From Brachycybe producta (Eukaryota; Arthropoda; Diplopoda; Playtdesmida; Andrognathidae): 64,000 bases of DNA. Below, one piece after another: positions 16,885-53,882 of the stretch. Both the position numbers and the translations under genes were made by a program. Position 1 is the stretch's first letter. The number at the start of each line of letters is the position of its first letter. Where the stretch lies: assembly GCA_036925085.1 (NCBI GenBank), contig JAUPFP010000117.1, forward strand, positions 62,001-126,000. The letters run 5' to 3'. A model generated the notes under the pieces. It saw only the letters and a program-made list of their open reading frames with translations, was not told the DNA's origin and made no database searches.

Positions 16885-17671
16885 TGTAACGTCCCGCCGG
16901 ACCGTCACAATACCCCAGTAAGTTCACCCCAAAAAGGACGTAAAACTTACCGCTAAACCGGCTCCTCACGGGGACGGGACCGTACCCGTAGCCATCTCCC
17001 GCACGGTGCTCCTTGAGTTGTGCCGGCTCCACGGAGCCACCCTCGACGGACACGACGAAAGACCACGCCGCCACGCCGAGAATATCGCGGTAGAACACCG
17101 GTTCTACCGCGAGCCGACACGAGGACCGGCCGAAACAAGTCGGAATAGGACGGTGGAGTTTCCCCACAACCAGAAACCCACCCCCCTCGCGGTAACTCCC
17201 CAAGAAATAACACGACACAGTAGTAAGCTGATAAAAGTGATTTATTTACACTTACGATGTGTGATGAGTAAAAACGATGGCAGTGATATTTACACAACTT
17301 GGCTGGTAAACTTCTACCAGCCAAGCCCCCATAAATATATACAAAGGCCCACAGGCCAAAGGCACAAAAGCCAAGAAGATGCACTGGCCAGTGGAGGTCT
17401 GACCTCCACCCACAGGTCTAGTCTGAAGCTCTGCCTACAACCAACTGCCTAGATCCTGTGGTTGACTAGGCCACAGGAAACCTCCAGGCAACTCCACCTG
17501 GAGGGGACAGAGGTCACTTCTGACCTCTCACCCATAGACTTCATGGTGAGAGGTCTGCTGGCACCAAAATGGCGTCCGTCCCAACAGCCTACTGTAGCTG
17601 TCAGGCAGACCACCATAGGGAAATTCGTCTGCTCCATCAAAATTAAAATTGGAGCAGACCAGGTTGCCACA
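16885..17671 (-). mobile_element. 3' LTR of the full-length Gypsy element
   Basis: 787 bp; element-sense ends TGTGGCAACC and GGGACGTTACA. It contains the polyadenylation-signal-like GTAAATAAATCAC. I count four substitutions and one 4 bp indel (about 17401) against the LTR at 28720-29510. The adjacent outer flank is ATGC (16881-16884), repeated at 29511-29514. Just inside, on the minus strand, is a purine-rich tract (GGGAAGTTGAGAGGA, about 17673-17688) in the polypurine-tract position. Confidence 0.95.
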
Positions 17672-17748
17672 ATCCTCTCAACTTCCCTGTTCTGTCTCGG
17701 GAACAGGTCAGTCAAGCCAGCCAGGATTGCTGCCCGAACCTGACCTTC

Positions 17749-20700
17749 TTAGGTACCGGACGGCTTCTCTGGCGGTGTTGCGAAAGTGGAGCCCATCCAC
17801 TCCGCAGCCCACCGACGTGCCCACCACAAGCACATCTGGGTGTTACGCCACCCAAAACCAGTATCGAAGACCGTCCCCCTAAGACGGCTTTCCTCCAGGG
17901 CTCGGAATTCCTCAAAAGGAATATCCTGGAGTTGCGGACGCGTGCGAAGCGTCCGACTTGTTAGAAGGTCTACCAGGGCAACCGCGGGCTCGGTCTCGCA
18001 CCCTGGTAGAGGCTCAGTTATAAACTGTCCAGCCATACCTCCTAGGTCGCATCCCAGCAAACGTTGGATGAATGGGGCTGCACGCCGGGCTAGACGAACT
18101 ATCCCGGCATCTAGCCCCACCACATCCAAAATAGCAAACGTTTGCTGGACCGGGTTCACGACCATGATCACCGGAAAACCTCCACAACCAAACGCCACCA
18201 CATGGCGCATGTTGTACGGCGGTAGCCTTGCTACCCACGGCTCTGGAAGTGGCTCATCCAGACGGTAGTAGCCGTGGTATTGGCAACCCTCCATTCCCGG
18301 CTGGTCCTGCCAGAGACCAAGCCGGTTATTCAGATACACCTCTGCATCTGAATACGGGGGCAATGCGCCAATATGCCGTCCCTCAGCCTCAGGCCTAGGG
18401 GAGGTTGACGTTTCAGGTCCTAGGGTATCGAATACCCCACCGCCATGGACCGGAGAGAAGGATGTACCCCCACTGGGGGTCACGGGGTCACGTTTTGTGG
18501 GAACACTAACTCCTGCAACCGAGGTTCCTTCGCCCCTAGGTGAGGGCAAAGTCACACGGTGCAGAGTTCCCACAGCTCGAACCCGCAGGCTCGAGACCGC
18601 ATCCACCTTCGGGGAGGATGGAGGCGTGCCGACCAAAACGTCGCGCATCGACCTACCATCCATCCGCGCCGCCTCAACGGGACGGGTATGGACCGGTTGA
18701 CTCCCGGCCGGCGTGCTTGCCTGAGCACGCCGGGACTCCTCCTTTTCCGCCACGACGCCTCCAGTTTCGGCTCCCTGGCACCTACTACTGGAGGGTGTCG
18801 GACTCCCCTTCCTCTCACGCTTGGACTTTTTACGGTCCTTCTTCTTTTTCTTCCCGTGAGAGGAAGGTTGACCATGCGTCGGGTCGGACTTAACTGACCC
18901 CGACGACTTACTGGGCCGATCAGGCTTAGGCGGGTGGTTAGCCCCCTTTGCCTTCTCGGACTCCTTCTTCGAAGGTTTTCCGGCCGGAGCCGTACTCTTC
19001 TTTGAAGAAGTGCCCTTAGCCGAAGTGACAGCCGAGGATGACTGTCCGGAGACAAATCTTCCTCGACCATCCCGAAGGAGAGACTTCTCCTTCGGTGCAA
19101 GAGTCGGCTGACTCTTGCTAACAGTCGCTTTGGCTTCCGCACCATGGGCTGGTGCACGGGAAGCCTGCATCGCCTCCCTCTCGGCGATTCGCTTCTGGCC
19201 AGCGCTGGTCGTGGCACTCGCAATCGGCGGGACGCCACGACCGAAAAGAGGTTCCCCTGTTTTGAGCGGACTCCGGGCGGGCATTCCCTGCAGGGGAGGG
19301 AACTCCGCAGCCCGGCGCTCAAACTCCTGCCGCTCTCCTGCACCGACCGCACGAGCAATCTGTCGGTGCAGGCTCGCTGCTTGAGCCTGAAGCCGTCTGA
19401 GCTTATCCTCTAAGCTCTCGGGCTTCCGAGGTTCGGAGGCCTTTCCTCGACCTGAGGACCTGGCCTTCTTACCCCTCGAGCTTTCAGCCACTGGTGGGGT
19501 GTGAGGGCGGGACCTTTTTTGTCCCTTACCACCACCACCACTCACAGATTTCCCCGTTTTACCGGGAGCAGGTACTGGAGGCTGGGTAGCCTTCTTCTCC
19601 GCTCGCCGGTCCCTCTTCGGGTTGTCCGACCGCCAGCCGGAGTGGCCAGCTACTGCCTCGGGCGGACCCGATCCAGCAGCCGGCTTCTCTGGCCAAGCAG
19701 CCCCTGGACAACCTTCAGGGTGGGCGAGAGTTTCTGCTCGAAGCCCCATAGCAGGCGTGAACTTCTTCAACACCTCCTCCTTAGCTTTGAGCAGAGCCTC
19801 TCTCTCTGCGAGAGCCTTGGCTCTGGCAGTGATCCGTGCGGCTCCGGACTTTTTCTTGCGCTTCCTTGCGCCGTCCTTCCTCACCTGCACGGTTGGAAAC
19901 TCCCCGACGAAGCATCGACGGTCCCCGACCAGGAAGCCACCTTCCTGGACCATGTCCCGTCTAGCTTCGTCCAACCGATCCAAGCGGTCTTCTTCTTCGG
20001 CCAAGGACACAGCCACGGCCTCCAAAGACATTGGATCAGCGGGAAGAACTCCGGGGGATCCCGTCCCAGACGGTTTACCCTCGGAGGCCGAACTACTCCT
20101 GTCAGACTCCGAAGAGCCCTCTGAAGAGGTGTTGCAGCTCCGCCACTGCCTTGAGGCGTCAACCACCGAATCAACGGTGGTTTCGACCTCCATCTCCGTG
20201 TCAATGACTAAGGACGCTCCCAAGGAGACGTCCTCACTGTCCTCGACCACCCTAGACCAATCTAGGAGGTCTCGAACAGACGGAGACCCGGGTTCCGGGG
20301 TACTAGCGGTTACCACACCGGTAGCCGCTTTCCCACCATCAATACCCGCTTCTGCAGCCTCACCAACCGGGGAAACTACCGCCGCCACCGACTGAACGGT
20401 GGTAGCAGCTGTATCCCTGGTGGGAGACTGCAGGTATCTGCCCCAGAAGGCTCCGACACCGGTCGGAGTCGACTGGGCAGATCCCGGACCTTCCACGGCC
20501 TCTGCCACCGGAGAATCAACAGATTCCACGGTGGCGTCAGCCGTTTCCGGTCCGCCAGATGATGGGGAGCCCTCCGATCCCGACTCCAACAGCCTTGCAT
20601 CCCCAGGATGCAGCGGACTGAGGGAGGGGGACCGTTGGCCACTCCCGTCGCCTTCCTCCTTCTCCTTCTCCGTGGTGGACCTGTTAAAAAGTGAAGAGAC

Positions 20701-22560
20701 TGTCAAACACAAGTTTTCACCGTGGAAAAGCGAATTCCACGGACTTTTACCGTGAGAACTCTCGTTTTCACCGTCCAAAGTCGGTAATTCACGGTCCCCA
20801 CCGTGTTTTACCGCCTTCGTACGGTGAAAACATCTTTTCCCCCTTTCGGAACCGGTAGAAAGAGTATTCCACGGGTTTGCACCGTGCGAATCGCGGTTTC
20901 CACCGTCCAAAGTCGGTAGACCACGGCAAAAACCATGGCTGACGGCCTTCGGACGGTGAAAACACCCTCTCACCGAGTTCCGACGGTTGGAAAGGGCATT
21001 GCACGGACTTCTACCGTGCAAAATGCCGTTTTCACCGTCCAAAGTCGGCAATTCACGGTCAAAACCGTGTTTCACCGCCTTCGATCGGTGAAAACCACTC
21101 CCTGGCGGGCTTCTACCATCCAAACACCGTCGAACTTGGGCCTTCCCAAGCGAAACGGCGCTCGGACGGGCTGAACCCGCCGGAAAAGTGCTTTCCATAG
21201 TGGCTTGGCCCCCATGACACGAGTCATGGCGGCGAAACCACTCCCACCACGTGTATATATGGTCATTGACCGTAAAACACACCGTTAACAAGTAGAAAAG
21301 AACTGCCGACAGGCAGGAGAAGGAAATACCCTTAGAGGGGGGGACTTTTTCAATGTTGCCCTCTATTTCCAGCTCTTGGTGGCCTCTTTGACGGTGAATT
21401 TTGTGTTTTCTTTTCACACGTGGTGCCGGCGTTTTTTGTTTGTTTAGTTTGCAAACAAGATGGCGCCTAGCCGCCAAATTCACCGTCTTAGCGGCTAATG
21501 GCCGTGCAGTAGCGGCTAACACATCATCAGCCACCTCATGCATGGTCACCATGGAGATTTCACCGTCGTCTGCCTTTTTAGGGGCAGACACACGGTGAAT
21601 TCTCCTACACCAAGACTGGACCTGATGGGAAGAAACATTTACCGTCAATTCTCTTATATTGACGGTAATGGGAGCTCTCATGGAGGTTTTCACGGACGGA
21701 TTTCGCCGTCCACGGACCGATTTTGTCGGGCCTTTGGCTGGACACTTGGTGATGGGCCGCCCTTGGTTTCTACCGAAACCGTGGCGGGCCCCAAACACCG
21801 CAACGTCCGGCCGCCTCCTCTCCCAGCCGTCCGCCCATATTAGCGGACTGCCGGCTCTCTCCCACCATAGGAAGGACTCCCAAAGAGTTCCCCACAATAG
21901 GGGCCTCCCTGGAGGGCTTCCTATACGTGCATCAAACCCACTCACCTCATACACCCTCGGTCTCCGCGGACGGAGATTGTACCGAGGAGGAGGGGGGTTA
22001 TCTGCTTCAGAGTCGGTAGACTCCTGCGAAGAAATGGACGGTGGTTTTAGCGCCGGAGTCATTCCACTCCGCGCCGAAGCCTCCGTGGCATCGCTGTCTG
22101 TACCGGAGGAGGTGTCAGAGACTCCAAGTCCATCTTCCTCCCTCACGGTACAGGTGGGTACGTACGGCTTAAGGTTATCAACATGAAACCGGTCCCGCAC
22201 CTTCCGACCATACCCATCTACGAACTCTATTTCGTAGATCAGGTCGGAATACTGCAGGACCACCGTACCCCTCTCAGCTTTATAGGCCAAGCTCCATTTC
22301 TTCGCCTGACCGAGCTTCCCAGCCTGATCTCTTATCCACACCTGATCCCCAGGCTGATAAAGAGGAGGCTCCACACGGCCAGCGTCGTACCGTTCTTTCT
22401 GCCTTTTCTGAGCAGCCGTCAAACGTTGACGAGCCTGCTCCTCCACGGCTTGCTGGTCGGGCAAGTCGCGGACTGGACCGTTCGGAAGGAGATTATCAAT
22501 CTCCATCCGGGGCTCACGCCCAAACAACAACTGATACGGAGAGACTTGCGTACTCTCCTG
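17749..22560 (-). CDS. Integrase C-terminus continuing into a giant extra ORF (ORF3)
   Basis: An open frame of ~1,600 codons. Its first ~170 residues are the integrase C-terminal part (QVSPYQLLFGREPRM, YQPGDQVWIRDQ, DRFHVDNLKPYV), ending with RYNLRPRRPR. After this comes sequence I do not recognise: a single hydrophobic segment (FSCLSAVLFYLLTVCFTV), a three-copy ~44-residue repeat (FHRSKAVKHGFDRELPTLDG), Ser/Glu-rich and then Lys-rich segments (KKKKKDRKKSKRERKG), and a C-terminal domain of ~250 residues (LNNRLGLWQDQPGMEG, VVNPVQQTFAILDVVGLDAG, WARRWAAEWMG). That last domain is conserved in the element at 48994-53899. The position is that of env, but one membrane segment and no signal peptide argue against an envelope. 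Whether ORF3 is a separate protein is unknown. Confidence 0.7.
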   Translation of the reverse strand, partial: QESTQVSPYQLLFGREPRMEIDNLLPNGPVRDLPDQQAVEEQARQRLTAAQKRQKERYDAGRVEPPLYQPGDQVWIRDQAGKLGQAKKWSLAYKAERGTVVLQYSDLIYEIEFVDGYGRKVRDRFHVDNLKPYVPTCTVREEDGLGVSDTSSGTDSDATEASARSGMTPALKPPSISSQESTDSEADNPPPPRYNLRPRRPRVYEVSGFDARIGSPPGRPLLWGTLWESFLWWERAGSPLIWADGWERRRPDVAVFGARHGFGRNQGRPITKCPAKGPTKSVRGRRNPSVKTSMRAPITVNIRELTVNVSSHQVQSWCRRIHRVSAPKKADDGEISMVTMHEVADDVLAATARPLAAKTVNLAARRHLVCKLNKQKTPAPRVKRKHKIHRQRGHQELEIEGNIEKVPPSKGISFSCLSAVLFYLLTVCFTVNDHIYTWWEWFRRHDSCHGGQATMESTFPAGSARPSAVSLGKAQVRRCLDGRSPPGSGFHRSKAVKHGFDRELPTLDGENGILHGRSPCNALSNRRNSVRGCFHRPKAVSHGFCRGLPTLDGGNRDSHGANPWNTLSTGSERGKRCFHRTKAVKHGGDRELPTLDGENESSHGKSPWNSLFHGENLCLTVSSLFNRSTTEKEKEEGDGSGQRSPSLSPLHPGDARLLESGSEGSPSSGGPETADATVESVDSPVAEAVEGPGSAQSTPTGVGAFWGRYLQSPTRDTAATTVQSVAAVVSPVGEAAEAGIDGGKAATGVVTASTPEPGSPSVRDLLDWSRVVEDSEDVSLGASLVIDTEMEVETTVDSVVDASRQWRSCNTSSEGSSESDRSSSASEGKPSGTGSPGVLPADPMSLEAVAVSLAEEEDRLDRLDEARRDMVQEGGFLVGDRRCFVGEFPTVQVRKDGARKRKKKSGAARITARAKALAEREALLKAKEEVLKKFTPAMGLRAETLAHPEGCPGAAWPEKPAAGSGPPEAVAGHSGWRSDNPKRDRRAEKKATQPPVPAPGKTGKSVSGGGGKGQKRSRPHTPPVAESSRGKKARSSGRGKASEPRKPESLEDKLRRLQAQAASLHRQIARAVGAGERQEFERRAAEFPPLQGMPARSPLKTGEPLFGRGVPPIASATTSAGQKRIAEREAMQASRAPAHGAEAKATVSKSQPTLAPKEKSLLRDGRGRFVSGQSSSAVTSAKGTSSKKSTAPAGKPSKKESEKAKGANHPPKPDRPSKSSGSVKSDPTHGQPSSHGKKKKKDRKKSKRERKGSPTPSSSRCQGAETGGVVAEKEESRRAQASTPAGSQPVHTRPVEAARMDGRSMRDVLVGTPPSSPKVDAVSSLRVRAVGTLHRVTLPSPRGEGTSVAGVSVPTKRDPVTPSGGTSFSPVHGGGVFDTLGPETSTSPRPEAEGRHIGALPPYSDAEVYLNNRLGLWQDQPGMEGCQYHGYYRLDEPLPEPWVARLPPYNMRHVVAFGCGGFPVIMVVNPVQQTFAILDVVGLDAGIVRLARRAAPFIQRLLGCDLGGMAGQFITEPLPGCETEPAVALVDLLTSRTLRTRPQLQDIPFEEFRALEESRLRGTVFDTGFGWRNTQMCLWWARRWAAEWMGSTFATPPEKPSGT
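20700..21130 (-). repeat. In-frame tandem repeat in ORF3 (~132-135 bp units)
   Basis: ACCGTCCAAAGTCGG recurs at about 20769, 20901 and 21036 (spacing ~132 and ~135), with inverted CACGG/CCGTG stretches in every unit. It is translated on the minus strand as a ~44-residue repeat with LPTLDGEN and SPWN/SPCN motifs. Its ACGG/CCGT composition resembles the non-coding leader repeat at 28130-28690. Confidence 0.75.
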
Positions 22561-22564
22561 GACA

Positions 22565-25500
22565 GCTGTTATACGCCCACACGGCGGGCCGTAATTTATC
22601 CCACCAATCACGCTGTTCCTTGAGGGGATCAAGGTACCGCTTGATGGTTTCCATTACGGTTTTATTCGTACGCTCCGTAAGCCCATTGCGGCTTGCGGAT
22701 GTTACGCCGTCGTGAAGTGATGCGCTATATTATAGCGCTCCCGGAACTTCAGCAGGACTTTGCTGGAGAACTGGGACCCACGATCCGAGACAAGAGCTTT
22801 CGGTGTGCCATACACCGAAAGGATCTCGTCCTTCAGGAATTTCCCCACACAGGCGGCCGTGGCCCTTCGTACCGCCCTTGCCACACCGTACCGGGTGAAA
22901 TAGTCAACCATGATTAGTACATAGGTGACCCCACCCACGGAGGCAGGAAACGGTCCAACAAAGTCCATTCCCCAGGTATCAACTGGGTACTCCGGCACAA
23001 TCGGTTGGAGAAATCCCTGACTTCGAGCGAACTGTCGCGCTCTCTGACACACCAAACATGACTTAACATATTCGGCAGTGTCCCGCTTCATACCGATCCA
23101 GTAGAAGCGTGAGCGCAGTCTCTGGTAGGTCTTAAACATCCCGAAGTGACCAGCTTCGGGAATGTCATGTAGCTTCCTTAGACAGAAAGCCCTGCATGAC
23201 TTCGGAACTACCAACACAGTTCTCAACCGATCCTGGATGGATCTGATGGCAAACAACAAGTCATCTGCCACCACAAACTTGAACCGGAGGTTCGAGTTGG
23301 GATCACGGAAGATTTCACTCTTCACTTTGGAGCACCAGCCATCGGCCTCTTGCTCCTTGACCCAATCCACCTCGGAACGGATGTGGTAAATGACCTCACC
23401 TACGTCGGCTTCGACGTATTCAGGTAAGGAAAGGTCCGCCACATCACGAACAGGATACCGACTCAAAGCGTCGGCATCCACGTGCAGTGTTCCCTTCCTA
23501 TACTGAACCTTAAACCGGTACTCTTGGAGCTGCATCTGCCAACGCCCCAACCTGCCTTGCAGGTTCTTGGCTGTCTGCAGATAGCAAAGAGCGTGGTGAT
23601 CAGTTACGATCACAAACTCCCAGTTAAAGAGGTAAGGACGGAATTTACCCACGGCAAACATGACCGCCAAGCACTCCTGCTCGGTGACCGAATACCGTGT
23701 TTCCGCTCCTTTCATGAGTCGGCTTGCGTAGGCCAGAACACGGGGGACACTGTCCTCCGGTAACTTCTGGTAGACTATGACTCCCAAGCCGTACCCACTA
23801 GCGTCGGTATGGATAATTACCTCACCACGCGGATCGTACATGGTGAGTACCGGCGCTTCGGTTAAAAATGCCTTTAACCGAGCAAATGCTAGTTTGCACT
23901 GATCCGACCACTCGAAGGACGCATCCTTCTTTGTCAGATCGTGCAAAGGCCTGGCCACCTTGGCGAAGTCCTTGATGAACCGTCGATAGTAACCGGCAAG
24001 TCCGAGAAAACTGCGGACGCCTGTCACTGTCGTCGGGACATCAAACTCCTGGACTGCCCGTACGAGATCCGGGTCCGGAGCAACTCCCTCGGCACTTACT
24101 ACGTGACCGAGATAACGCACTTTGTTAAAGCCGAAGAAACATTTCTTCGGCTGGAGTTTCAGCTCCGCCCCTCGTAACAGTCCAAGGACAGTGGAGAGTC
24201 TCTCGAGAAACTGCTCGAAAGTGTTCCCAAAGACGATAATATCGTCCAGGTACACCAGACAAGTCTCCCACTTATGTCCTGCCAATTAGAGGTCTAGCGC
24301 TCTCTGCATGGTGGCTGGAGCATTACAGAGTCCGAAAGGCATTTTCCAGAACTCAAACAGACCTTGAGAGCAAATGAATGCCGTCTTCTCAACGTCTGGC
24401 TCAGCCAGACTAGACAGACCAGACACTAGCCAGGTCCAAGATAGCGAAGAACTTCGCACCGGCCAATGAGTCGAGCGCATCATCGATGCGAGGCAACGGA
24501 TACTGATCCAGCTTGGTCTGGGCATTCAGTTTCCGGTAGTCCACGCAAAAACGAAAGCCACCATCCTTCTTGCGAACAAGCAAGATAGAGCTCGCGTAGG
24601 GACTACGCGAAGGTTGGATAACCCCTGCATCCAACATCTTCGCCACCTCTTCTTTCTCGACTGCTCTGGCCGCTGGAGCGGTTCGACGCAATCCTTCACG
24701 CACCGGAGGTTGCCCACCGGTATCGATCGTATGTTCGACCAGAGAGGTTTCACCCAACTCTGTGAAGTCGAACGCGAAATGATCCCGGCGTGCCAGCAGG
24801 AACTCTCGAAGCTGTCTCGCCTCTTCAGGCTTCAGATTGTCACCAATCTTAAGACACTCTTCGAGGGTGGGAGCCGTCGCCACATTGAGCACTTGGCGTC
24901 CGTTTCCGGACGCCCCTCTCAACTTAGACGAGGACTTCCCTGGTCGAACCGTCCTCTGAGTGGGGTCTCCCCCTCTCAACTTAGACGGCTCTTCCAGCCC
25001 TACCACAATGGCAGCCTCGACAGCTTGAGCCGTGGCTACACCCTCTCCTGTTTCCAGGGCGATATGTGCCTCTCCCACGTTCTCAAGCCAGATATCATAC
25101 GTGCCAAGCCGGTTAGCTGCAGCGATACCTGCTACGGCCAACACACCACGTCCACCTAAGGCTTTCCGGTGCGGCTCCACGAGAAGCAGCTGGCCAGGGC
25201 CGGCATGCTCTACCAACGTCACGGATACGACACGTCGTACGTGGGCTGGTAGCCAGACATTCTCTCTCAGTCGCAGAGAACAAACTTCTCCGCGCCCGAT
25301 AGAGGTTCTGGTCTCGGGCAGCTCTGGTGAAACAACGTTCACCCACCCGTCAACCTGCTCGAGTGCCGGCGGATCCACTGGGAGTTGCCGTCCCTGAGGC
25401 AAAGCCCCTGGTATCGGCGATGGAATTGCTTCCACCTCCCTAGGTTCTGCAAGCGCACGATCGGTGAATGCAGCTTGGAGGGCATCTGGATGTGCCGTCC

Positions 25501-26422
25501 AGACATCCTCCCGGAAGTAAACCTTCCGGTGCACGATATCAACCATCAAGCCGAAGCGTGAGGCGTGATCAACGCCCAACAACGCTTCGCCCTCTCCTTT
25601 CACCAAAAGGAGAGGCACCTTGATGGTTTTCTTGTGGATGGTCAATTCCACATTTGTGACCCCTACTACCTCGATGGAGTGCCCACCCATTCCCAGAAGG
25701 AATGAAGGAACCGCCAGTTCCTCTATAGGCAACTCCATCACTCGTGCCGCCGTGATGCTTAGTACCGACACGTCGGCCCCGGTGTCTACGATCATCTCCA
25801 ACAGACGATCGCCTATCGACACCCACACCCTCGGTGAACCTACATCGTAGGCCCGGCTCTGAAACTCAGGGATGGGAACCCGCGGGCTCCCACCATCGAT
25901 CTTCTGCCTCCCGTCCACCTTACCGTCCACACCGGACGGTAATCCCAGACGTGCAGAAGACTGGGGCACAGTCTCAGAAACCAGAGACCCCCCAGGCACC
26001 ACGGGAGGTATGGGCACACCAACTCCTCCCGCCTGCTCGATGATCGCACGATCCAGCACCTCACCACTAGGCATGTAGGGTGAGGGGGCAAACCAGCGAT
26101 CCAGCTGGCTGCACACGGCCTCCACTGTGGAGCATGGCGATGGAAATACCCACTGGGTAATTTCCGGGTCCGCAGACCTCGCCAGAGGCACCCCTGCCTT
26201 CCGCAGGACATCCACATATTTGGAGACCGCCCGGAGGTACGTCCCTCGTTCAGAGCTCAGGCCGTGACAGGCACCTGAGCTTTGAAGCTTTACCGGTCGC
26301 ACACCACTCAGTTCGGTGGCGACCGGCGGCGGTTTAACGAGGATCTCTCCTCGTCCTCCACGAGTCGATAGTAGAACTGGCCATCGCGAACAGTGGCCAG
26401 GTACTTCCGACCCTCCAGCCAA
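22565..26422 (-). pseudogene. Gypsy pol (protease-RT-RNase H-integrase), interrupted
   Basis: Minus strand. 26422-24420: unknown N-terminal domain (GTYLRAVSKYVDVL), aspartic protease (MIVDTGADVSVLS), then the start of RT (RSPYASSILLVRKKDG, FRFCVDYRKLN). A frameshift near 24420 follows LDLAS; RT continues (KTAFICSQG, MPFGLCNAPATMQRAL) to an in-frame TAA at 24283. It goes on with the RT catalytic LVYLDDIIVFG, RNase H (HTDASGYGLG, TEQECLA, VTDHHAL), the integrase H2C2 zinc region (HDIPEAGHF, CLVCQRA) and core (MDFVGPFP, VSDRGSQFSS). A TAA near 22700 and a 1 nt frameshift cut the core before its Glu region, and another frameshift near 22565 leads into the 17749-22560 frame. As read, no intact polyprotein can be made. 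Confidence 0.88.
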
Positions 26423-27977
26423 ACTGGCGCAACGCCAGCGGTTGGCTGGAGGCTCTGACTTTCGTCAGGCACCACCCTGGCAACCTGTCCTTTGGCCGCA
26501 GCCTTCGGACAATCCTTCCTCAGGTGACCCATCTGGTTACACCCGAAACAAGGACCTAGTCGCCGGAGTGAATCTCCTGTACGGTCCGCACTTCGAGGCG
26601 TTGCCGCCGGCTGACCTCCGCCAGAGCCTGCCTGCTTCTTCTTCTTGCCTCCGGTCTTGGCTCCTGCTTTGTCCGACTTGGACGGTGCAGCAGCCTTCGC
26701 ACCCGTTTGGCTCGAAGACGAAGCCTTGGCAGAGCTCCCAGAGCTAGCCGTGGTTCCGGAGGACGGAGCGTTAGCCCTGTCCTGAGGAACCCTTCTTGTA
26801 CGGGTAGGTAATTTACCTACTAGAAGCAAATCGGCCTCCACCAGCCGTGCCTTTCGGGCATATGCCTCCACCGTACCGGCCTTGCAACCAATCAACTGAT
26901 CAGTGATGGCCGTCTGGAGTTTCCGTTTGAAGCGAATGAGCCGACAGCTCTCGTCTTCGCCCGGAGACACTCGGTCGGACAGTTCCAAGAACCGCCAGTA
27001 GAATGCCTGAACAGACTCGGTAGCCTCCTGTTTCATGGATTCGAATTCCCCGAAACAGAGGCGAGCCTGGTTGCTTGTGCTGAAGCGGCTACGCATAGCG
27101 TCCTTCAGCTCAGTCCAGGTCAGGTCCGGAAGAGTTTCCACCAACGTGGCGTAGTACTCTTCCGCCGGACCGTCCAGCAGAAACGTAAAGAAACTGCATC
27201 GGGACTCGTCCGTCCAGCGCTGAGCTCGGGCTTTCGCTTCGAACTTGCGGAGAAAAGGCGTCAAGTCCTCTCTGCCGTCGTAACGAGCAAAAGAGTGGAC
27301 CGGGTTAAAGAACCCTGAATGCCTGAACCTCCGCTGGAACCGCTGGAGCGGGCGTCCAAGCAGCGGCGCTAACCCTGCGAGGTTGCCTGCTCCGGTTCCC
27401 CGAAACGTCAGACGGACTCAGCTTCCGAGGGGATCATCATCTGAACCCTCGGCTGCTGTCCGGGTACACCAGGAGCTCCCCGGCCAAGTCCCCGAGGGGA
27501 TGGCCTGGGTGCTACCCGCGGAGGTACCAACCGGGGAAGTACCGGTGGTTCCTCTCCCTGTGCGCCTTCACGCACGGGCGACAGTGAGAACCGAGGTGTC
27601 ACCCTCGGCTCAACCGTCGACCGGGACAGTCGTCCTTCCAACCGAAGGACGTCTATTCCGTACGCAATCTCAACGAGTTGCTGCTCGGATAGCCCGGCTA
27701 AAAAGGCCCGGCCCTCACGTGCAGTCCTTGTCCGGGATTTCACACCATATCCCTACGGGGATGATCGCCCCATCCAACCGGACGGGCGACGGTGGAAAAC
27801 TTGGACCTCCGGCCGTGGCCGATCGTCCTCCCCGGTGAGATCACCGTCGGAACTACTGTCCTCCACCAGGTATTCTCCCGGACGGACGTCACGGCGGCGT
27901 TTCCGCACCGTGACCCAGTCCTCTGGGAAATCCCTGTCTACGCTTCCGCTATGCACCTCTGTCTCCAGAGGCCACAC
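26308..27977 (-). pseudogene. Gypsy gag with CCHC zinc knuckle, broken at its N-terminal side
   Basis: The main frame 26308-27264 encodes a capsid-type Retrotrans_gag region (FEAKARAQRWTDESRCSFFT, LLDGPAEEYYATLV, QAFYWRFLELSDRVSP), a Ser/Lys-rich linker and one CCHC knuckle, CFGCNQMGHLRKDC. Comparison with 51070-52350 shows the true N-terminus is upstream: 27411-27977 matches it, but with an in-frame TAG at about 27753 and a frameshift near 27410. The gag end overlaps the pol frame by about 115 nt in another frame, a layout compatible with ribosomal frameshifting. Confidence 0.82.
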
Positions 27978-28129
27978 CGCCTTCCGCCCCCCAAGGGGGA
28001 CGGTCGACTACGCGGGCCGCGTAACTCTAAACCCGCATCTACTCCAAGTTCCGACCTCCCCGTCGGTACTTTTGGGGCTGGCTCCATTTTTCACCATAAA
28101 TGAACGGTAAAATCTGGACAAAGCCACCA

Positions 28130-28690
28130 GATCTCGGGTTTTCCACCGTCGAAAACGGTAAACTCACGGACAAAAGTCCGTTAAAATACCGTTACGAACG
28201 GATGGGACCGTGCAAAACCGCGGTATCACGGACAAAAGTCCGTGTCCCACGGTGAAGAACGGTCAGAGTTTGACTTCACCGGTTTCGACCGCGGTATAAT
28301 GGACAAAAGTCCGTCTCTCATGGTGTACTTCACGGTACAAGACCTTTTACCACTTTCTACCGTGGACCAACGGACAACAGTCCGTACACCACGGTGTACT
28401 TGCGGTAAAATACCGTACACCACCGAAAACCACGGTACCACGGACCGTAGTCCGTGCCCCACGGTAATTCGACGGTACCAATACGGTAACCGACGGTAAA
28501 TTTACCGTTAACCACGGTACAACGGACCAGAGTCCGTTCCCCACGGTAAACAACGGTAAATCAACGGTGAAACGGTGGTTTCCGCCGCTGTCCCACGGAC
28601 CAAAGTCCGCGCCCAGTGACGTACTCTCACCGCACGGTGATTCGACCGACTTAACGGTCGAATACACGGTAAATCACCGTGCGAGAGGCG
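28130..28690 (-). repeat. Leader tandem hairpin repeat of the Gypsy element
   Basis: Seven CGGACNNNAGTCCG-type stem-loops (plus-strand GGAC at 28168, 28230, 28301, 28372, 28442, 28524, 28597; spacing 62, 71, 71, 70, 82, 73). Each is embedded in further inverted ACGGT/ACCGT pairs. It lies between the primer-binding site and gag, so it would be in the 5' untranslated RNA. The same design is in the related element at 49980-50960. Confidence 0.85.
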
Positions 28691-28699
28691 GGGTACAGG

Positions 28700-28717
28700 T
28701 GCCCAGCTCCTCCACCA
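28700..28717 (-). promoter_or_regulatory. Putative tRNA primer-binding site
   Basis: Two bases after the 5' LTR end (…GTTACA-AT), the minus strand reads TGGTGGAGGAGCTGGG. TGG at this point is complementary to tRNA CCA ends, as in LTR retrotransposons. The same TGGTGGAGG core follows the LTRs at 49885 and 37734. I cannot name the tRNA. Confidence 0.7.
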
Positions 28718-28719
28718 AT

Positions 28720-29510
28720 TGTAACGTCCCGCCGGACCGTCACAATACCCCAGTAAGTTCACCCCAAAAAGGACGTAAAACTTACCGCTAAACCGGCTCC
28801 TCACGGGGACGGGACCGTACCCGTAGCCGTCTCCCGCACGGTGCTCCTTGAGTTGTGCCGGCTCCACGGAGCCACCCTCGACGGACACGACGAAAGACCA
28901 CGCCGCCACGCCGAGAATATCGCGGTAGAACACCGGTTCTACCGCGAGCCGACACGAGGACCGGCCGAAACAAGTCGGAATAGGACGGTGGAGTTTCCCC
29001 ACAACCAGAAACCCACCCCCCTCGCCTTAACTCCCCAAGAAATAACACGACACAGTAGTAAGCTGATAAAAGTGATTTATTTACACTTACGATGTGTGAT
29101 GAGTAAAAACGATGGCAGTGATATTTACACAACTTGGCTGGTAAACTTCTACCAGCCAAGCCCCCATAAATATATACAAAGGCCCACAGGCCAAAGGCAC
29201 AAAAGCCAAGAAGATGCACTGGCCAGTGGAGGTCTACCTGACCTCCACCCACAGGTCTAGTCTGAAGCTCTGCCTACAACCAACTGCCTAGATCCTGTGG
29301 TTGACTAGGCCACAGGAAACCTCCAGGCAACTCCACCTGGAGGGGACAGAGGTCACTTCTGACCTCTCACCCATAGACTTCATGGTGAGAGGTCTGCTGG
29401 CACCAAAATGGCGTCCGTCCCAACAGCCTACTGTAGCTGTCAGGCAGACCACCATAGGGAAATTCGTCTGCTCCATCAAAATTAAAATTGGAGCAGACAA
29501 GGTTGCCACA
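28720..29510 (-). mobile_element. 5' LTR of the full-length Gypsy element
   Basis: 791 bp, almost identical to 16885-17671. Element-sense start TGTGGCAACCTTGTCTGCTC, end GGCGGGACGTTACA. Inside, element-sense, a TATATATTTATGG stretch and GTAAATAAATCAC are candidate promoter and polyadenylation signals. TSD ATGC at 29511-29514. Confidence 0.95.
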
Positions 29511-29924: not shown

Positions 29925-30160
29925 TTAACATAAGAGTTAGAAATTCGCGATTTTGAAATAGTTTTTAAAAATATAACCTCACTTTCCAATTTTTTGTCAT
30001 TCTATCACTTGTTCAACATATATTTATAGTGCACATTGCACTTTGAAAATTTAAGATTGGACAACTTTAAATATGAAAAATAAACATTGCCGCGACTGTG
30101 TATTTGCGGAGATTTTTCGAAGTAATTTTGTGATGTATAGCCTCTTAAATAGAGTGAAAT
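29925..30160 (-). mobile_element. Foldback family E, single arm
   Basis: AGAGTTAGAAATTCGCGATT ... AATATAACCTCACTTTCC ... CGGAGATTTTTCGAAGTAAT ... GATGTATAGCCTCTTAA is one arm of family E; the opposite arm is missing. Confidence 0.65.
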
Positions 30161-30772
30161 GAACTGCAAGGTGTTGATTACACATCCCATAATTGTTTGA
30201 AAAAAAGTTTCTTGATACTTGGTGTATTGTGGAATATAGTGAACTTGTTAACCACAAGTTATACATATATATACTGTATATAGAACAGAAAGACAGTGCA
30301 TCCTGCTTCTGAAATAAATTTTTAGCTTCTTGCCAAACAAAGTCATAAGAAAATAACCTTTTTTAAGTTTTTAGAAGCTAGAAAGAAAGAAGAAAGAGAG
30401 TGAGGTGACTGACATTCTGAAACACACATAAAAATCCATAGAAAAATAACCAACCAAAAAAAACCGCACATATCAGACTAAACATATCATATTATTCAAA
30501 ATAACTTTTTAAATTATGGAGAGGCTAAAATATTAATTCTATGTAAAAATTTCTATTCATTGTAGATTATTTTTAATTTATCTTATTTTATTGTAAGAAG
30601 CACTGTAAAAAAATGACATGCTTAACTGGCTAAAAATAGAGCCAGGAGGCCCAAAATAACACAGCCATGCAAAAGCTAAGTTTCACAACATTTTTTGAGG
30701 TTAGTTAAAGTTTAAAACTGAAAGCAATGGAAACTAAAAAAAAAAATCTGGTTCAGAAGTCCTGAGGAATTA
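30161..30772. other. Intronic AT-rich DNA, no feature recognised
   Basis: AT-rich, with A runs and no coding, RNA or terminal-repeat signal that I can support. Confidence 0.5.
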
Positions 30773-31475
30773 AGAGATTACTTCGAAAAATCTCCGCAAA
30801 AGAGCGCGAACATCGTTTTTATGTTGCCCCCCATAGACGCAATGTTAAAGAAAAAATGTTAGTTTTTAAAATAACAGTCGCGGTGACAATATGTTTATTT
30901 TTCATATTTAAATTTGTCCAATATTAAGGTTTCAAAGTGCAATGTGCAACTTAAATATATGCTGATCGAGTGATAGAATGACAAAAAATTTGTAAGTGCG
31001 GTTATATTTTTAAAAAACTATTTCAAAATCGCGAATTTCTAACTCTTATGTTAAACTCTAGTGAATAAAATTTTGGTAAAAAATACTTAAATAATTTTTA
31101 AAAACCACATGTAAACCACAGTGAAGCTAACACACTGGCGCACGTGCTGATTTTTTTCTGATTTTTTAATTGATGTTTTTTTTTCTTACGAGGGCGTACT
31201 CAATGGAGTTAGAAAGTGGCGATTTTGAAGTAGTTTTTAAAAATATAACCGCACTTACCAATTTTCTCACCTCATATATTTAAGGTGCGCATTGTACTTT
31301 GAAAACTTAATATTGGACAACTTTAAATATGAAAAATAAACATATTGCCACGACTGTGTATTTTAAAAATTAACGTTTTTTCTTTAACATTGGGTCTATG
31401 GGCTCATTATAAAAACGATGCTAGCGCTCTTTGCGTAGATTTTTCGAATTCATTTTGCGATGTAGATTTCCTAGG
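30773..31475. mobile_element. Foldback element, family E, both arms
   Basis: The left arm starts GAGATTACTTCGAAAAATCT and the right arm ends GTAGATTTTTCGAATTCATT. The interior has the shared GGCGCACGTGCTGATTTTTT segment. The arms are a few hundred bp long and inverted. It lies immediately downstream of the large host exon (about 225 bp away). Confidence 0.75.
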
Positions 31476-31700
31476 CAATCTGTAAAATTCAACGCCTAAA
31501 ATCATGGAAATATTGTTCGATATGATTGTTTTTAAAAATCAAAAATATAAAAATTTGAGAAAGAAATTTTTTTTAAAAAAATGAAACCCGAAAAAAACCG
31601 CGTTTTTTTTTCAAACATCGCGGTTCCCCTTCCCCCCCCCCTCCAAACTTTTTAAGTTTTTATTCAATTTTAAGTATGAGACTGTAATTGTAATACATAC

Positions 31701-48448: not shown

Positions 48449-48993
48449 AGGGGCTACATCGCAAAATTACTTCAAAAAATCACCGCAAAGAGCGCTAGCA
48501 TCGTTTTTGTATGGAACCCATAGACCCCATGTTAAAGAAAAAAATGTTAATTTTTAAAATACACAGTCGCAGCATTATGTTTGTTTTTCATATTTAAAGT
48601 TGTCCAATATTAAGTTTTCAAAGTGCAATGTGCACCTTAAATATGACACAAAATTGGTAAGTGCAGCTTTATTTTTAAAAACCATTTCAGAATCGCGAAT
48701 TTCTAACTCTTATGTTAAACTGTTGAGTACGTGCTCTAAGCAATAAAAATCCATTAAAATGCTTGTAAAATACCTAAAAAATAATTTTAAAAAAAACACA
48801 ATTAAACCACAATAAAGCCAACACATTGGCGCACGTGCTGATTTTTTTTCTGGTTTTTTAAAATTATTTTTACGTATTTTTACGAGCATTTTAATGGATG
48901 TTTTTTTTTCTTATTTGAGTGGTAAATTCACGATTTTGAAATAGTTTTTAAAAATATAACCTTACTTAACAATTTTTTGTCATTCTATCACTC
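48449..48993. mobile_element. Foldback family E, left part (interrupted)
   Basis: GGGGCTACATCGCAAAATTA ... CGCAAAGAGCGCTAGCATCG ... GGCGCACGTGCTGATTTTTT ... TTTTTGTCATTCTATCACTC. The sequence breaks at the Gypsy derivative and resumes at 53904 with GAACTTAACTTAATATTGG. Confidence 0.75.
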
Positions 48994-49885
48994 TGTGACA
49001 ACCCAGTTTTGCTCTTTATGTGGAGCAGAACTAAATCTCCTGTGTCGTCTGCTAGGCTGGCTAATTAGTTGCCAGGCAGACGACAAAATGGCCAGCATGG
49101 GGTCACTGTCCTCCCCCAGGTGGAGCAGCCTGGGGGTATATAATGGCGGCGGCCATTATATTCTGGGCAGTGTGTGAAACCCTTGATTGTTGAGAGGATG
49201 TGTGGCCATGTGGTGGTACATGGGTGAAGGGCGTACAAGATGGCCGCCATGGGAACATCTCTTTGTTCTTGGATCTACTTGTTGGGCTTTTGTTGTGTTC
49301 TCTGCTGGACATTCTGTCCAGCAGAGAACACAAGATTGCTATAATTAATAGTGTTTTATCCATCACCATTTATTCTTTGGAATAAATTATCATCTGTTAT
49401 CCCTTGATCTTGGGTTGGCTCTCTGCTGGACCATTTGTCCAGCAGATATTGCCTAAAGTACAGTGAGTGTTTTTACTTAATAATTCATCTGTGAATAAAG
49501 TCTCTATTTATTTTCACTCATACACACTGGTGTCCGTGTCATATTATTTTAATATTATTTTCTGGGGAAGTTACCGCGGGGAGGGTGGGGGTTCGAGTGG
49601 GATTTCACCGTCCACCCACCGTCCTATTTCCGTCGTTTCGGCCGGTACTTCGCGTCGGGATTCCACGGTAAGATCCAACGGGGATTTACCGTGGATTCTC
49701 CATTGGTTCGGCGGCAATTCGTCCGTCAATCTACGGGGAGATCGACTCTCGACCGGCGTCACCCAGGGACCGGACGGACAAGAGCGGGCAGTCCGTGCTT
49801 CGACCTCGGCCCCAAGGGAGTCAGGAAGAGTTAAGACGGGGAAGTTTTGCCGGGTGTTGTTTCGGACCCAAGTCGGATCGTTACA
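48994..49885 (+). mobile_element. 5' LTR of Gypsy derivative (family B2)
   Basis: 892 bp, TGTGACAACCCAGTTTTGCT ... AAGTCGGATCGTTACA. Contains GGAATAAATTATC/GTGAATAAAGTCTC as possible polyadenylation signals and two short hairpins (TGCTGGAC...GTCCAGCA). Preceded by ACTC (48990-48993). PBS at 49888 (TGGTGGAGGCGCCGGG). Confidence 0.85.
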
Positions 49886-49979
49886 ATTGGTGGAGGCGCC
49901 GGGTAGCGCCACCACTGCCGCTCTTGACGGTCGAAAGACCGTGGAAACTGTTTGCCACTGCCGGGCGTGGACTTTGTCC

Positions 49980-50960
49980 ACGTTACAGCGGTGAAAAACA
50001 GTTTTTGACCGTAAACTTTACTGGTAGATTGGTAGTAAACCGTGGGACACGGACAGTTGTCTGTGGGACTACAGTTGAAACCAATCTACGGTCACGTTTA
50101 CCGGTAGTATACCGTAGGGCACGGACCGTTGTCCGTGGAACTACGGTAGAAACCGGTTCACGGTCAGGGTCGGTAGACCGGAGTCGTGAGTACGCCGGTA
50201 GGGCGTGGACATTTGTCCACGGTACTACGGTGGAAAACGGCTTAGGGCGTAGTAGTCCGGTAAAGTTGAACTGTGGGACACGGACGGTTTGTCCGTGATA
50301 CCGCGGTGGTTACCGGGGAAAGCCCTAGGTTATCCGCAAGTAGGACGGTGGGCACGGTGGTTGACCGTGCAGGACCGTTCGAAAGCGGGATAACGGTAAT
50401 TTTTACCGCTAGTATACCGGTGGCACGGTGGTTTACCGTGCACGGCCGGTAGAACACGGTAAAAAGGCATTTTTACCGCAAGTAGACGGTGGACTACGGA
50501 CTTTTGTCCGTGGATCACCGTTCGAACACAGTAAAAAGGGAGTTTCACCATCAGTGGACGGTAGATTACGGATCGTTGTTCGTGTATCTCCGTTCGAGGA
50601 TGGTGAAAGTTACTCCAACCGTAAATCTAACCGTGGGACACGGACCGTTGTCCGTAATACCGTGATTATTTGCGGTTTTACCGGTGTTTGACGGTGTGTG
50701 GTGGGCTTTTGTCCGTGTATCACCGGGCAGACACGGTAAAAAGGGAGTTTTACCGTTAGTAGACGGTGAATTGCAGACTTTTGTCCGTGAATTACCGGTC
50801 GAACACGGTAAAAAGGTAGTTTCACCGCTAGTAGACGGTGGTTTGCGGACCGTTGTCCGTGAATCTCCATTCAAAGACGGTGAAAAGAGACTAACCGTAC
50901 GGTTACTGTGGGACACGGTTTGGTACGGTTCGACCGTTGTTTGACGGTGATTTCTGGACT
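49980..50960 (+). repeat. Leader tandem hairpin repeat (~72 bp units)
   Basis: GACGGT starts units at 50485, 50557, 50690, 50762 and 50834 (72 bp steps, one 61+72). Each unit has CGGACNNTTGTCCG or a compensated variant (for example GTGGACATTTGTCCACGG near 50205), plus an inverted ACGGTAAAAAGG..TTTTACCGT pair. About ten units. Same position and design as 28130-28690. Confidence 0.88.
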
Positions 50961-51069
50961 TTGGTCCATGAATTCGCCAGATTTCACGGTAGATTCTATC
51001 ACCTACAAGTGGTGGCCGTTTCTGTCCGTGTTCGCACAGTGGGAATCGGCTTAAACCCCATTCTCCCCG

Positions 51070-52874
51070 ATGGTAGGTCGGGGTAACGGTGTAGGCGAGA
51101 GATTGGAGTTACGTTCCCGCACCATCGGCCGTGGTATGCGGCTGGAGGGGCAGCAACCGGTTGGGGTTGCTGTCAGCGGAAACGGGAACGGTGGTTCCGT
51201 GGAGGAAGGTGCCGTAGGGGGTGTCCCTACGGACCGACCTCCGTGTGGAGACTTTGTGACGGTGCGATCGCACCGTGGAGGCATTGTTACCGACGGAACA
51301 CCGTTGGATGGTGGTGAAGGGGTTGTGAGGACCCCAGCAGAGATAGGCACACGGCCTTTGGCCGGTGTCCTGGCCTCCACTGCCACCGGTCCGGTTGGAC
51401 ATGGTGGGAAACTCTTAAGTGAGTCGGTGGGGACTCTGTTGGGTAGTCCACAGGGCACGGAGTCATTGTTGACATCGTGGTCCGAGGAAGAACTCCTTGC
51501 GGTTGCCAGGGGGATTGACTACCTGCGGTTGCAGGGACGTCTGCCCCAAGGGATCCATGGGATCCAGAAAGGGCAACCGCAGTTCCCACCATCGCCCGTG
51601 CACCGGGGAAGTGTGCGAAGGGAGGCGCCGCCGGTTTCGACTGGGCAGATACCTCCTGGAGGAACTGGGACTGCTCCTATGGGAGTTGGTCACGAAGTTC
51701 CTCCGCCCGTTCAGCCACCGAGGGTCCACTGGGTGGAACCCACAGAAGCTGAGCTTGATGCTGAGACTTCGGGAAACCAGAGCAGGGCACCACGGCGGGT
51801 ACCGCGTGGGTGGACGCCTGCACCGGCCGTCCCGTTGGAGATTCAGGCGTTTGGGTTTTTCAACCCAGTTCACTTGTTCATTCGGTATGATGTACGAGAG
51901 GATATTACGCCTTTTCTCCGACAGTTCGAAGCCAAAGCGAGGGCTCAGCGCTGGACAGATGAGGCCAGGTGCAGTTTCTTTATGTACCTGCTCGACGGCC
52001 CGGCTGAAGAATACTATGCCAGTTTGGTGGAGTTTCAGACGGACCTGACCTGGCCAGAGCTAAAGGAGGCCATGTTCCAGCGTTTCAGGACCAAGAATCA
52101 GGCTCAGGCCTGTTTCGATCGGTTTGAAACAATGGTGCAGGGGCCAACCGAGTCACTCCAGGCATTCTACTGGCGCTTTACTGAGCTAGCAGAACGAGTT
52201 TCTCCTAATGAGGATGAGTCTTGTCGACTCCTCCGATTTAAAAAGAAACTGCAGCCGGCGATCCTCAGACCGCTCTGGGGATCGAAGGCCAAAACGGTGT
52301 GGGCATTCGCAGGCAATGTTGGTCGAGGCCGACATGCTGACGGCGGGTGAATTGCCTGCCCGTACCTTGACGGTACCAGAGACCAAGACTACGGTCAAGG
52401 CCTCGGGTGCTGTGGCACAGCCCAAAGGCTCTGCTAAGTCTTCCTCCAACCCTTCGGGTGCAAAGGCGACTGTTAAGTCCAATGCGGACGAAGCGACTGC
52501 CAAGACCGGAGGGAAGAAGGGTAATAAGACTAGGCGGCGGAGCCAGGGTGGAAATAAGTCCACAGCAGCCCCGTCTGGGTCTGGTCAAATGGCTGGAGGT
52601 GGTGGTCCCACCCATAAGCAACCAGGTCCATGCTACAAGTGACAAAATGGGTCACTTGAAGAAGGATTGTCCAGAGGCTTTGGCCCGAGGACAGGTTGCT
52701 AGGGTCACACCTGGCAGAAGCCAGGCGGTGCCGTATGGCACGGGTCTTGTACCCATGGTACGGCAAAACCGTGAGTGTCTGTCCACCGTAATTAATGGAC
52801 AGACCTACTATCTGCCCGTTGCCAGAGACGATGGTGCGCCATCGTTAAACCAGCAACGGTCGCTGCAGAAATGA
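51070..52874 (+). pseudogene. Gypsy gag of the derivative, frameshifted
   Basis: 51070-52310 is open: a Gly/Pro-rich N-terminal region (SWSEEELLAVARGIDYLRLQ), then the capsid domain (FEAKARAQRWTDEARCSFFM, LLDGPAEEYYASLVEF, QAFYWRFTELAERVSPNEDE). A frameshift near 52310 continues as MLVEADMLTAGELPARTLTV; a second, near 52635, falls inside the zinc knuckle (PCYK then DKMGHLKKDC). It shows that the gag N-terminus in this family extends well upstream of the longest frame in the 12.6 kb copy. Confidence 0.82.
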
Positions 52875-53882
52875 GCTGCAGTCGACCGGGTACGCTTAAA
52901 AACTCAGGTGTCCGGCGGAGCCGGCGAAGTGAGGAAGGGACGTACCTTCGGGCAGTGTCCAAATATGTGGAAATCCTGCATGAAGCAGGGGTGCCTCTGG
53001 CGAGGTCTGCGGACCCGGAGATTACCCGTTGGGTGTTTCCGCAGCCATGCCCCACATTGGAAGCTGCGCTTGCCCGGCTGGAGAGCTGGGTGGCACCTTT
53101 CTTCTCTGCTTGTGGGGAAGAAGGTCCGAAACGTACAGGCATTACGAGGGCTTCGAGCGTTGGTGCGCCCATGCTGTCGCCTAGGCCTGGTAGGTCTCCT
53201 GGTTTGGAGACTGTTACCCAGACCCCCGAGCATCCGGTACGACCATCCCTTGTCGGCCGGGAACCAGCCGTACCATACCCATCAGGTAATGACGGCGCGG
53301 ACGGATGGCAGGTCAATGCGAGACGTTGTTCTCGGTATACCTCCATCCTCCCCGAAGGTGGTCACGGTACCGAACCCGCGGGTTCGGTACCGTGACCACT
53401 CTCCGCCGGGTCAGCTTGCATTCACCTAGATTGCGGGGCAGCCCGGTGGGGACAGTTAGTGTTCCTACCAAACGTGGTCCCGTGCCTTCCATTGGAAGGA
53501 CACCCTTCTCTCCGAGTCCTGACAAGAGGGTCTTTGGGATCCTAGGGCCGGAAGAGGAATCCAGGTCTCCCCAGCCTGTGGGCAAGGGACGACACTCTGG
53601 AGCCAGTCCTCCGTATTCAGAAGGAGAGGTCTTTCTGAATAACCGACTTGGTCTGTGGCAGGACCAGCCGGGAATGGAGGGGTTCCAGTACCTTGGTTAT
53701 TACCGTTTGGGAGAGCCACTCCCGGTACCATGGTTGTTGTCGTTGCCGTCATTTAGCATGCAATATGTGCTTGCTTTTGGCGGTAGAGACTTTTCGGTGT
53801 TGTTGGTCGTCAACCCGGTTAGGAGACGTTTTGCATTTTTGGATGTGATGGGGACAGGAGCTGGATTAGTTTGTCCTTTCCC
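52875..53882 (+). pseudogene. Fusion of pol N-terminus and ORF3 C-terminal domain
   Basis: 52890-53285 encodes GTYLRAVSKYVEILHEAG and PEITRWVFPQPCPTLEAALA, matching the region before protease at about 26100-26250. Near 53290 it changes, in other frames, to ORF3 sequence: MRDVVLGIPPSSPKVV, then LNNRLGLWQDQPGMEGFQYL, YYRLGEPLPVPW and VVNPVRRRFAFLDVMG. Protease, RT, RNase H and most of ORF3 are deleted; the C-terminal domain is still open from about 53430 to 53880. Confidence 0.8.

What the first reader, a model, noticed from the sequence alone, without database searches (positions are those of the whole stretch)
17749..22560. Gypsy element with a ~1,200-codon extra ORF whose C-terminal domain is conserved in a second element
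After the integrase end (RYNLRPRRPR) the frame stays open for more than 1,200 codons, with one hydrophobic segment, a tandem peptide repeat, Lys-rich tracts and a globular-looking C-terminal domain (LNNRLGLWQDQPGMEG ... FAILDVVGLDAG ... WARRWAAEWMG). The 48994-53899 derivative has lost protease, RT and integrase but retains that C-terminal domain in an open frame, with mostly conservative changes. I do not recognise it as env, chromodomain, dUTPase or RNase H. Conservation is seen directly; function is unknown.
Basis: partly seen in the sequence, partly recalled or inferred. Interest (0 to 1): 0.78.

Follow-up and report, generated by a model that had tools for sequence, protein, structure and literature searches.

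The report
Gypsy element with giant polymerase tail
A family of jumping genes in an unnamed invertebrate genome carries a very long protein tail behind its integrase; the last 200 or so residues are kept by natural selection in three sister families, found no relative by sequence in our searches, and may be a worn-out relative of SUMO-cutting enzymes.

Summary
A young Ty3/Gypsy element (16885-29510, minus strand; LTRs 783 of 787 aligned bases identical) has a 1,634-codon frame whose last 1,401 codons follow the integrase. In the same 295-Mb genome at least three families (F1, the window's; F2; F3) share this: pol and extension form one frame of about 2,480 (F2) or 2,900 codons (F1, F3) in many copies. 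The C-terminal ~218 residues are under purifying selection (dN/dS 0.27-0.36 between families, 0.09-0.12 within F1). The hydrophobic segment and tandem repeat form a module absent from the F2 copy compared; its repeats resemble those of the 5' leader. The 53-kb copy keeps only the first half of the domain. Env and chromodomain readings fail. No sequence relative was found, within the limits of the searches. Two low-confidence structure models both rank clan CE (Ulp1/SENP/adenain) proteases first, never significantly; the inferred places of the catalytic His and Cys hold Phe/Tyr and Pro. Best reading: a Pol-fused nuclear accessory protein ending in an orphan domain, possibly a dead Ulp1-like fold. 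Closest functional precedent: CERV of C. elegans Cer1. New variant of a known kind; mechanism inferred, not shown.

The parts
28720..29510 (-). 5' LTR
   Evidence: 791-column alignment with 3' LTR: 783 matches, 4 mismatches, 4 gap columns; flank ATGC on both outer sides
28145..28621 (-). 5' leader repeat array with short hairpins (about 70-nt spacing)
   Evidence: repeat families D4 and D5
26311..27417 (-). gag (capsid part, CCHC knuckle)
   Evidence: PF03732 E 4.6e-11, PF00098 E 1.9e-4
24413..26464 (-). protease and N-terminal part of RT; overlaps gag by about 150 nt in another frame
   Evidence: PF13650 E 4.8e-7; translation
22705..24285 (-). C-terminal part of RT, RNase H, integrase H2C2 and core
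   Evidence: PF17917 6.5e-34, PF17921 5.5e-20, PF00665 2.9e-14, PF00078 1.1e-7
21955..22653 (-). integrase C-terminal part with GPY/F-like module and tail to RYNLRPRRPR
   Evidence: same open frame as the extension; first 145 alignment columns dN/dS 0.13-0.14 between families
17752..21954 (-). C-terminal extension of Pol, 1,401 codons
   Evidence: in frame with integrase also in F2 (L059) and F3 (L060)
21274..21330 (-). hydrophobic segment; its first part is a pyrimidine tract ending in a splice-acceptor-like CAG (exon side from 21302)
   Evidence: KD 2.03; acceptor-like site ranks third of 364 AG sites in the F1 frame and third of 401 in F3 L060 at the homologous place
20727..21095 (-). 132-nt tandem repeat inside the frame, related to the 5' leader repeats
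   Evidence: TRF score 321; summed blastn score to leaders 1973 against at most 519 in 100 shuffles and 118-252 for three other coding stretches
20680..20703 (-). best splice-acceptor-like site of the whole element (exon side begins at 20680)
   Evidence: first of 881 AG sites in F1 element; best of 401 in F3 L060 lies at the homologous place; not shown to be used
19681..19938 (-). conserved basic middle block
   Evidence: dN/dS 0.11, 0.09, 0.21 for the three family pairs, dS saturated in the first two
17752..18405 (-). orphan C-terminal domain, 218 aa to the stop
16885..17671 (-). 3' LTR
48994..49890 (+). LTR-like 5' end of the F2-type deletion derivative
   Evidence: 75-96% matches to sequence lying behind the domain in F2 copies
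51055..52347 (+). gag of the deletion derivative
   Evidence: PF03732 E 1.3e-9
53566..53874 (+). first half of the C-terminal domain (profile positions 1-103 of 212)
   Evidence: E 1.5e-62; 95% DNA identity to F2 copy L059 over 53248-53875

Best explanation
Shown: it is a genuine, translated C-terminal extension of the Pol polyprotein of a Ty3/Gypsy lineage, made of a fast-evolving basic linker with one constrained block and a strongly constrained C-terminal domain of about 200 residues. Inferred: the extension acts in the nucleus, as part of integrase or cut off from it by the element's protease. The C-terminal domain would be a protein-binding module with a degenerate clan CE (Ulp1/SENP/adenain-like) fold: the inferred catalytic His and Cys places hold Phe/Tyr and Pro while the Asp is kept, so it would bind rather than cut, for example a SUMO-like modifier or a SUMO-modified chromatin or pore protein, and thereby tether the integration complex or the element's RNA-protein particle to a host nuclear factor. 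Rough odds: selected Pol-fused protein 0.95; acts in the nucleus and is not env 0.6; dead clan CE fold 0.4; the whole statement as below.
For: Selection: dN/dS 0.27, 0.30, 0.36 between families F1-F2, F1-F3, F2-F3 on 43 of 58 loci (15 dropped for stops or short match); bootstrap 0.30 [0.21-0.43] for F1-F2; 0.12 (28 pairs) within F1. One frame with pol: frames of 2,800 codons or more at 10 of 144 places and 16 of 150, 12 of them exactly 2,897; 4 of 150 exactly 2,478. Not env: no hydrophobic segment above 1.44 in F2, none outside the domain that strong; no N-x-S/T in F2 and F3. Nuclear character: Lys/Arg runs, linker pI 9.9-10.6. Fold: Foldseek on model 2 (F3 first) puts clan CE proteases in rows 1-8 and in 23 of the 50 shown; on model 1 (F1 first) in rows 1 and 3 and in 14 of 50; clan membership of these entries is recalled. 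Order strand, strand with Asp, helix, strand, helix fits Ulp1. Column check: place 17 residues before the Asp holds F 13, Y 8, S 1 of 22; Asp 22 of 23; Pro 23 of 23. A 20-residue stretch ranks 4th (F1), 6th (F3), 17th (F2) against 953 background 20-mers by similarity to four C48 20-mers of this genome.
Confidence: 0.3

Rival explanations
1. CERV-like RNA-export factor: the extension is the last exon of a spliced subgenomic mRNA, as in Cer1 of C. elegans, and helps unspliced genomic RNA out of the nucleus; the leader hairpin array could be its target.
For: [quoted passage not shown]). The best acceptor-like site of F1 and of F3 falls at the homologous place. F2 and F3 share a GTAAGT donor-like site in gag at homologous places.
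Against: The donor-like site is not kept in F1 nor in the window's F2-type copy; the phases of donor and acceptor fit in F3 only (my reading); F2 L059 has no acceptor-like site above 4.6 and lacks the module. 40 of 40 scored genome places run unspliced through the F1 site, and the 53-kb deletion is not a splice junction. The acceptor scoring is a simple matrix recalled from general knowledge.
Confidence: 0.2
2. Integrase targeting tail without any Ulp1 relation: the C-terminal domain is an unrelated new fold that steers integration, as chromodomains do in chromoviruses.
For: In-frame fusion behind the GPY/F-like module; strong constraint on the end domain and the basic block.
Against: Target sites of the copies were not compared here; no chromodomain or other Pfam domain was found.
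Confidence: 0.25
3. Degenerate or unusual env: hydrophobic segment as membrane anchor, the rest as surface protein.
For: Env position; one hydrophobic segment kept in F1 and F3 with dN/dS 0.42 within F1 (30 codons, 55 pairs).
Against: The segment is absent from F2 L059, whose frame is otherwise open; the segment lies about 1,190 residues from the C-terminus; no N-x-S/T in F2 and F3; most of the chain is basic, Ser/Pro/Gly-rich linker; no env family in Pfam.
Confidence: 0.06
4. The hydrophobic and repeat module is leader-type repeat sequence captured into the frame and tolerated, not a functional part.
For: Shared repeat vocabulary with the leaders, 0 of 100 shuffles as high; highest dN/dS in the extension (0.44 within F1, 0.58 [0.40-0.84] F1-F3); absent from F2 L059.
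Against: dN/dS stays below 1 and the frame is kept; but the copies were picked by protein score, which favours open frames.
Confidence: 0.6

Closest known systems
CERV of Cer1 (Ty3/Gypsy, C. elegans; PMC10309623, abstract, passages and section 9 read)
   Same: Large ORF between pol and 3' LTR in frame with the polyprotein; no env features; basic motifs; an orphan protein with a domain that looks like a degenerate enzyme (there a G-protein fold).
   Different: CERV is 517 aa from a five-exon spliced mRNA with gag-derived N-terminus; here 980-1,410 aa, splicing not shown; no sequence relation found; suspected fold differs.
Gypsy_Ds1 of the ostracod Darwinula stevensoni (PMC7998251, passages read)
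   Same: Pol extension beyond the integrase GPY/F motif without detectable homologues.
   Different: About 250 aa with a predicted coiled coil; here 980-1,410 aa with a different end domain. The two sequences were not compared here.
ORF3 types of bdelloid rotifer LTR elements (PMC5408684, abstract and outline seen)
   Same: Invertebrate LTR elements with non-env third ORFs.
   Different: Those are dUTPase, GDSL esterase, DEDDy exonuclease or paramyxovirus-type env; none matched here.
Peptidase C48 / Ulp1-SENP, clan CE
   Same: Top Foldseek rows for both models; Asp and local strand pattern.
   Different: No Pfam or profile match; inferred catalytic His and Cys missing.
Chromodomain integrases of chromoviruses (recalled)
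   Same: Extra domain fused behind integrase.
   Different: No PF00385 match in the extension; far larger.

Membership tests
Ty3/Gypsy LTR retrotransposon | two LTRs, target duplication, gag, then protease-RT-RNase H-integrase order | tested here: met
   pol frame broken in two places in the window copy
Retroviral or errantivirus env | conserved membrane anchor, glycosylation sites, match to an env family | tested here: not met
   no anchor in F2, no N-x-S/T in F2 and F3; no env family
Chromodomain integrase | chromodomain behind integrase | tested here: not met
   Pfam scan of three pieces covering the frame to E 1 and of 27 domain rows to E 10
Peptidase C48 / clan CE | sequence profile match | tested here: not met
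   PF02902 over the genome to E 10: 30 places, none the element's; hhalign P 0.33
Peptidase C48 / clan CE | catalytic His, Asp, Cys | tested here: inconclusive
   if the model-based register holds, His is F/Y/S (22 of 22 letters), Cys is Pro (23 of 23), Asp kept (22 of 23); register rests on a poor model
Peptidase C48 / clan CE | papain-like clan CE fold | tested here: inconclusive
   no significant match, low-confidence models
Peptidase C78 (UFSP) | profile match | tested here: not met
   PF07910 over the genome to E 10: 5 places, none the element's; Mug105 E 1.4 in PDB sequences
CERV-like export factor | in frame with polyprotein between pol and 3' LTR | tested here: met
CERV-like export factor | made from a spliced mRNA | tested here: inconclusive
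CERV-like export factor | nuclear and needed for genomic RNA export | not testable with these tools
   needs cells

The most novel reading that the evidence does not exclude
A Ty3/Gypsy lineage has captured a Ulp1/SENP-type protease, lost its catalytic residues, and uses it as a SUMO- or ubiquitin-reading tail of integrase that guides the integration complex or genomic RNA inside the nucleus.
Probability: 0.15. Interest if true: 0.8.

Novelty: new variant of a known kind. Interest (0 to 1): 0.55.

Why it matters
LTR elements repeatedly gain extra protein parts, but few are both this large, fused to integrase and clearly under selection across several families. If the end domain is a dead SUMO-protease fold, it would be a retroelement that reads a host modifier to find its way in the nucleus, testable with one small recombinant domain. 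If it is a CERV-like factor, it would suggest that env-position proteins in invertebrate Gypsy elements are often export factors rather than envelopes.

Tried and rejected
Sequence searches without a relative: Pfam, three pieces of the frame to E 1 (best DUF4926 E 0.0011, 18.7 bits, below its cut-off of 29.1, over a 26-residue stretch in the integrase part) and 27 domain rows to E 10 (LEP503 E 0.1, SWC7 E 0.3); PHROGs to E 1 (best 0.11); NCBIfam to E 1 (best 0.17); PDB sequences, single (none to E 10) and profile (best TopBP1 E 0.41). Protein database: end domain inside a 966-aa query, none of 1,575 candidates to E 1; profile, none of 7,996 scored to E 10. These two searches cover proteins of roughly 530-1,690 and 120-390 aa that share short words, so a relative only inside a polyprotein of another length, or without shared words, would be missed. 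IMG/VR: none. Of 144 pol relatives the 120 listed were tested with the domain profile; the best, E 0.014, aligns to the stretch before RT motifs and is chance. PADLOC was not searched.

Splice hypothesis: see rival 1. Hairpin array: in eight 61-nt leader units of the 50-kb copy the inner stem is paired in 54 of 56 cells against 16-27 when slid, but arm permutation reaches that in 262 of 1,000, so covariation is not shown for it; the outer stem reaches 36 of 48 with 3 of 1,000 permutations as high. An 8-bp hairpin count was not convincing against shuffles. A mixed leader alignment was off register for the F1 rows and not used.

dN/dS limits: Nei-Gojobori counts; copies were chosen by protein score, which favours open frames; 43 of 58 loci used, where within-F2 gave no usable ratio; linker value within F1 from 5 of 8 loci (3 had stops); middle-block dS is saturated for F1-F2 and F1-F3. 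Only one F2 (L059) and one F3 (L060) copy were compared over the whole extension.

Host: mitochondrial COX1 on contig C442 reads open for 511 codons under the invertebrate code; I read it as arthropod-like from memory; no name.

Literature: searches found no description of this extension; the library holds open-access papers only. PMC11952523 and PMC9289625 were seen in listings only.

Full report
What is there. The window holds a Ty3/Gypsy element on the minus strand, 16885-29510. Its LTRs (791 alignment columns: 783 matches, 4 mismatches, 4 gap columns) are flanked on the outside by ATGC. Gag with a CCHC knuckle, protease, RT, RNase H and integrase follow in the usual order. The pol frame of this copy is broken in RT and in integrase. 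The frame that starts in integrase, 17749-22653, runs for 1,634 codons and ends about 80 nt before the 3' LTR. After RYNLRPRRPR it stays open for 1,401 codons; the other five frames hold 21-74 stops and 500 shuffles never fewer than 31.

It is the normal state of the lineage. The window lies in a 295-Mb genome, G000. The C-terminal 267 residues match 144 scored places and the related piece of the 53-kb copy 150 places, both lower bounds. At 10 of 144 and 16 of 150 places the open frame is 2,800 codons or longer, 12 of these exactly 2,897; four of the 150 are exactly 2,478. Clean copies fall into three clusters about 60-75% identical in the domain: F1 (the window's), F2 and F3. One F2 copy (L059) and one F3 copy (L060) were read from integrase to the end and are open throughout. 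So the extension is fused to Pol rather than a free ORF by accident.

Selection. In the C-terminal region dN/dS is 0.27 (F1-F2), 0.30 (F1-F3) and 0.36 (F2-F3), with bootstrap limits of 0.21-0.43, 0.21-0.42 and 0.23-0.49 on single copies. Within F1 it is 0.12 for the region and 0.09 for the domain. A basic block in the middle has 0.11, 0.09 and 0.21, with saturated dS in the first two pairs; the integrase end has 0.13-0.14. The rest is looser: basic linker 0.42-0.60, Ser/Pro spacer 0.50-0.78, hydrophobic and repeat module 0.58 between F1 and F3 and 0.44 within F1.

The module. The hydrophobic segment and the 132-nt repeat sit in one module of about 260 columns that is present in F1 and F3 and missing from F2 L059. 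Its DNA shares many short matches with the 5' leaders (summed score 1973; at most 519 in 100 shuffles; 118-252 for three other coding stretches), and the F3 module behaves alike (2152, not shuffled). Just at its end lies the best splice-acceptor-like site of the F1 element (first of 881) and of F3 L060 (first of 401), at homologous places; a third-ranked site lies at the start of the hydrophobic segment in both. A donor-like site in gag is shared by F2 and F3 but not by F1 or the window's F2-type copy. No spliced copy was seen among 40 scored places. I take splicing as open.

The 53-kb copy. It is an F2-type deletion derivative: LTR-like end, gag, then a jump from the gag-protease spacer into the extension at 53248, with a few bases of microhomology and no GT-AG. 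It ends at 53875 within the domain; 103 of 212 profile positions remain.

What it is not. Env: the F2 extension has no hydrophobic segment above 1.44, and F2 and F3 have no N-x-S/T. No Pfam, PHROGs, NCBIfam or PDB-sequence match. No relative in the protein searches made or in IMG/VR, and none in 120 listed pol relatives. The limits of these searches are under Tried and rejected.

Mechanism. Shown: translated, selected, fused to Pol. Inferred: nuclear action from the basic linker and the place behind integrase; binding rather than catalysis from the missing residues. [quoted passage not shown] Searches of the held literature for this arrangement gave no description of this domain.

Verdict. A real and conserved orphan Pol extension: new variant of a known kind (Gypsy elements with extra domains behind integrase), interest 0.55, mechanism open.

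Noticed in passing
50025-50881 (+) and 28145-28621 (-): The 5' leaders of both element copies are arrays of about 70-72-nt repeats, most with a short hairpin core; inner stem paired in 54 of 56 cells in eight units, outer stem 36 of 48.
   Followed up: partly
56726-58042: Satellite-like array of 32/64-nt units rich in TTTGCCCTAAA.
   Followed up: no
31614-34388 (-): Open frame of 925 codons without a Pfam or NCBIfam match; looks like a host gene.
   Followed up: no
48479-48806 and 54576-54933: Two 81% identical direct repeats flank the deletion derivative; similar repeat sequence lies at 29934-31343.
   Followed up: no
L078, L079: The genome also has Peptidase C48 matches inside open frames of about 1,050 codons at several places, possibly other mobile elements.
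   Followed up: no
P0050, P0056, P0068: Some distant pol relatives carry long C-terminal parts ending in membrane-anchor-like segments; P0050 has PF12259.
   Followed up: no
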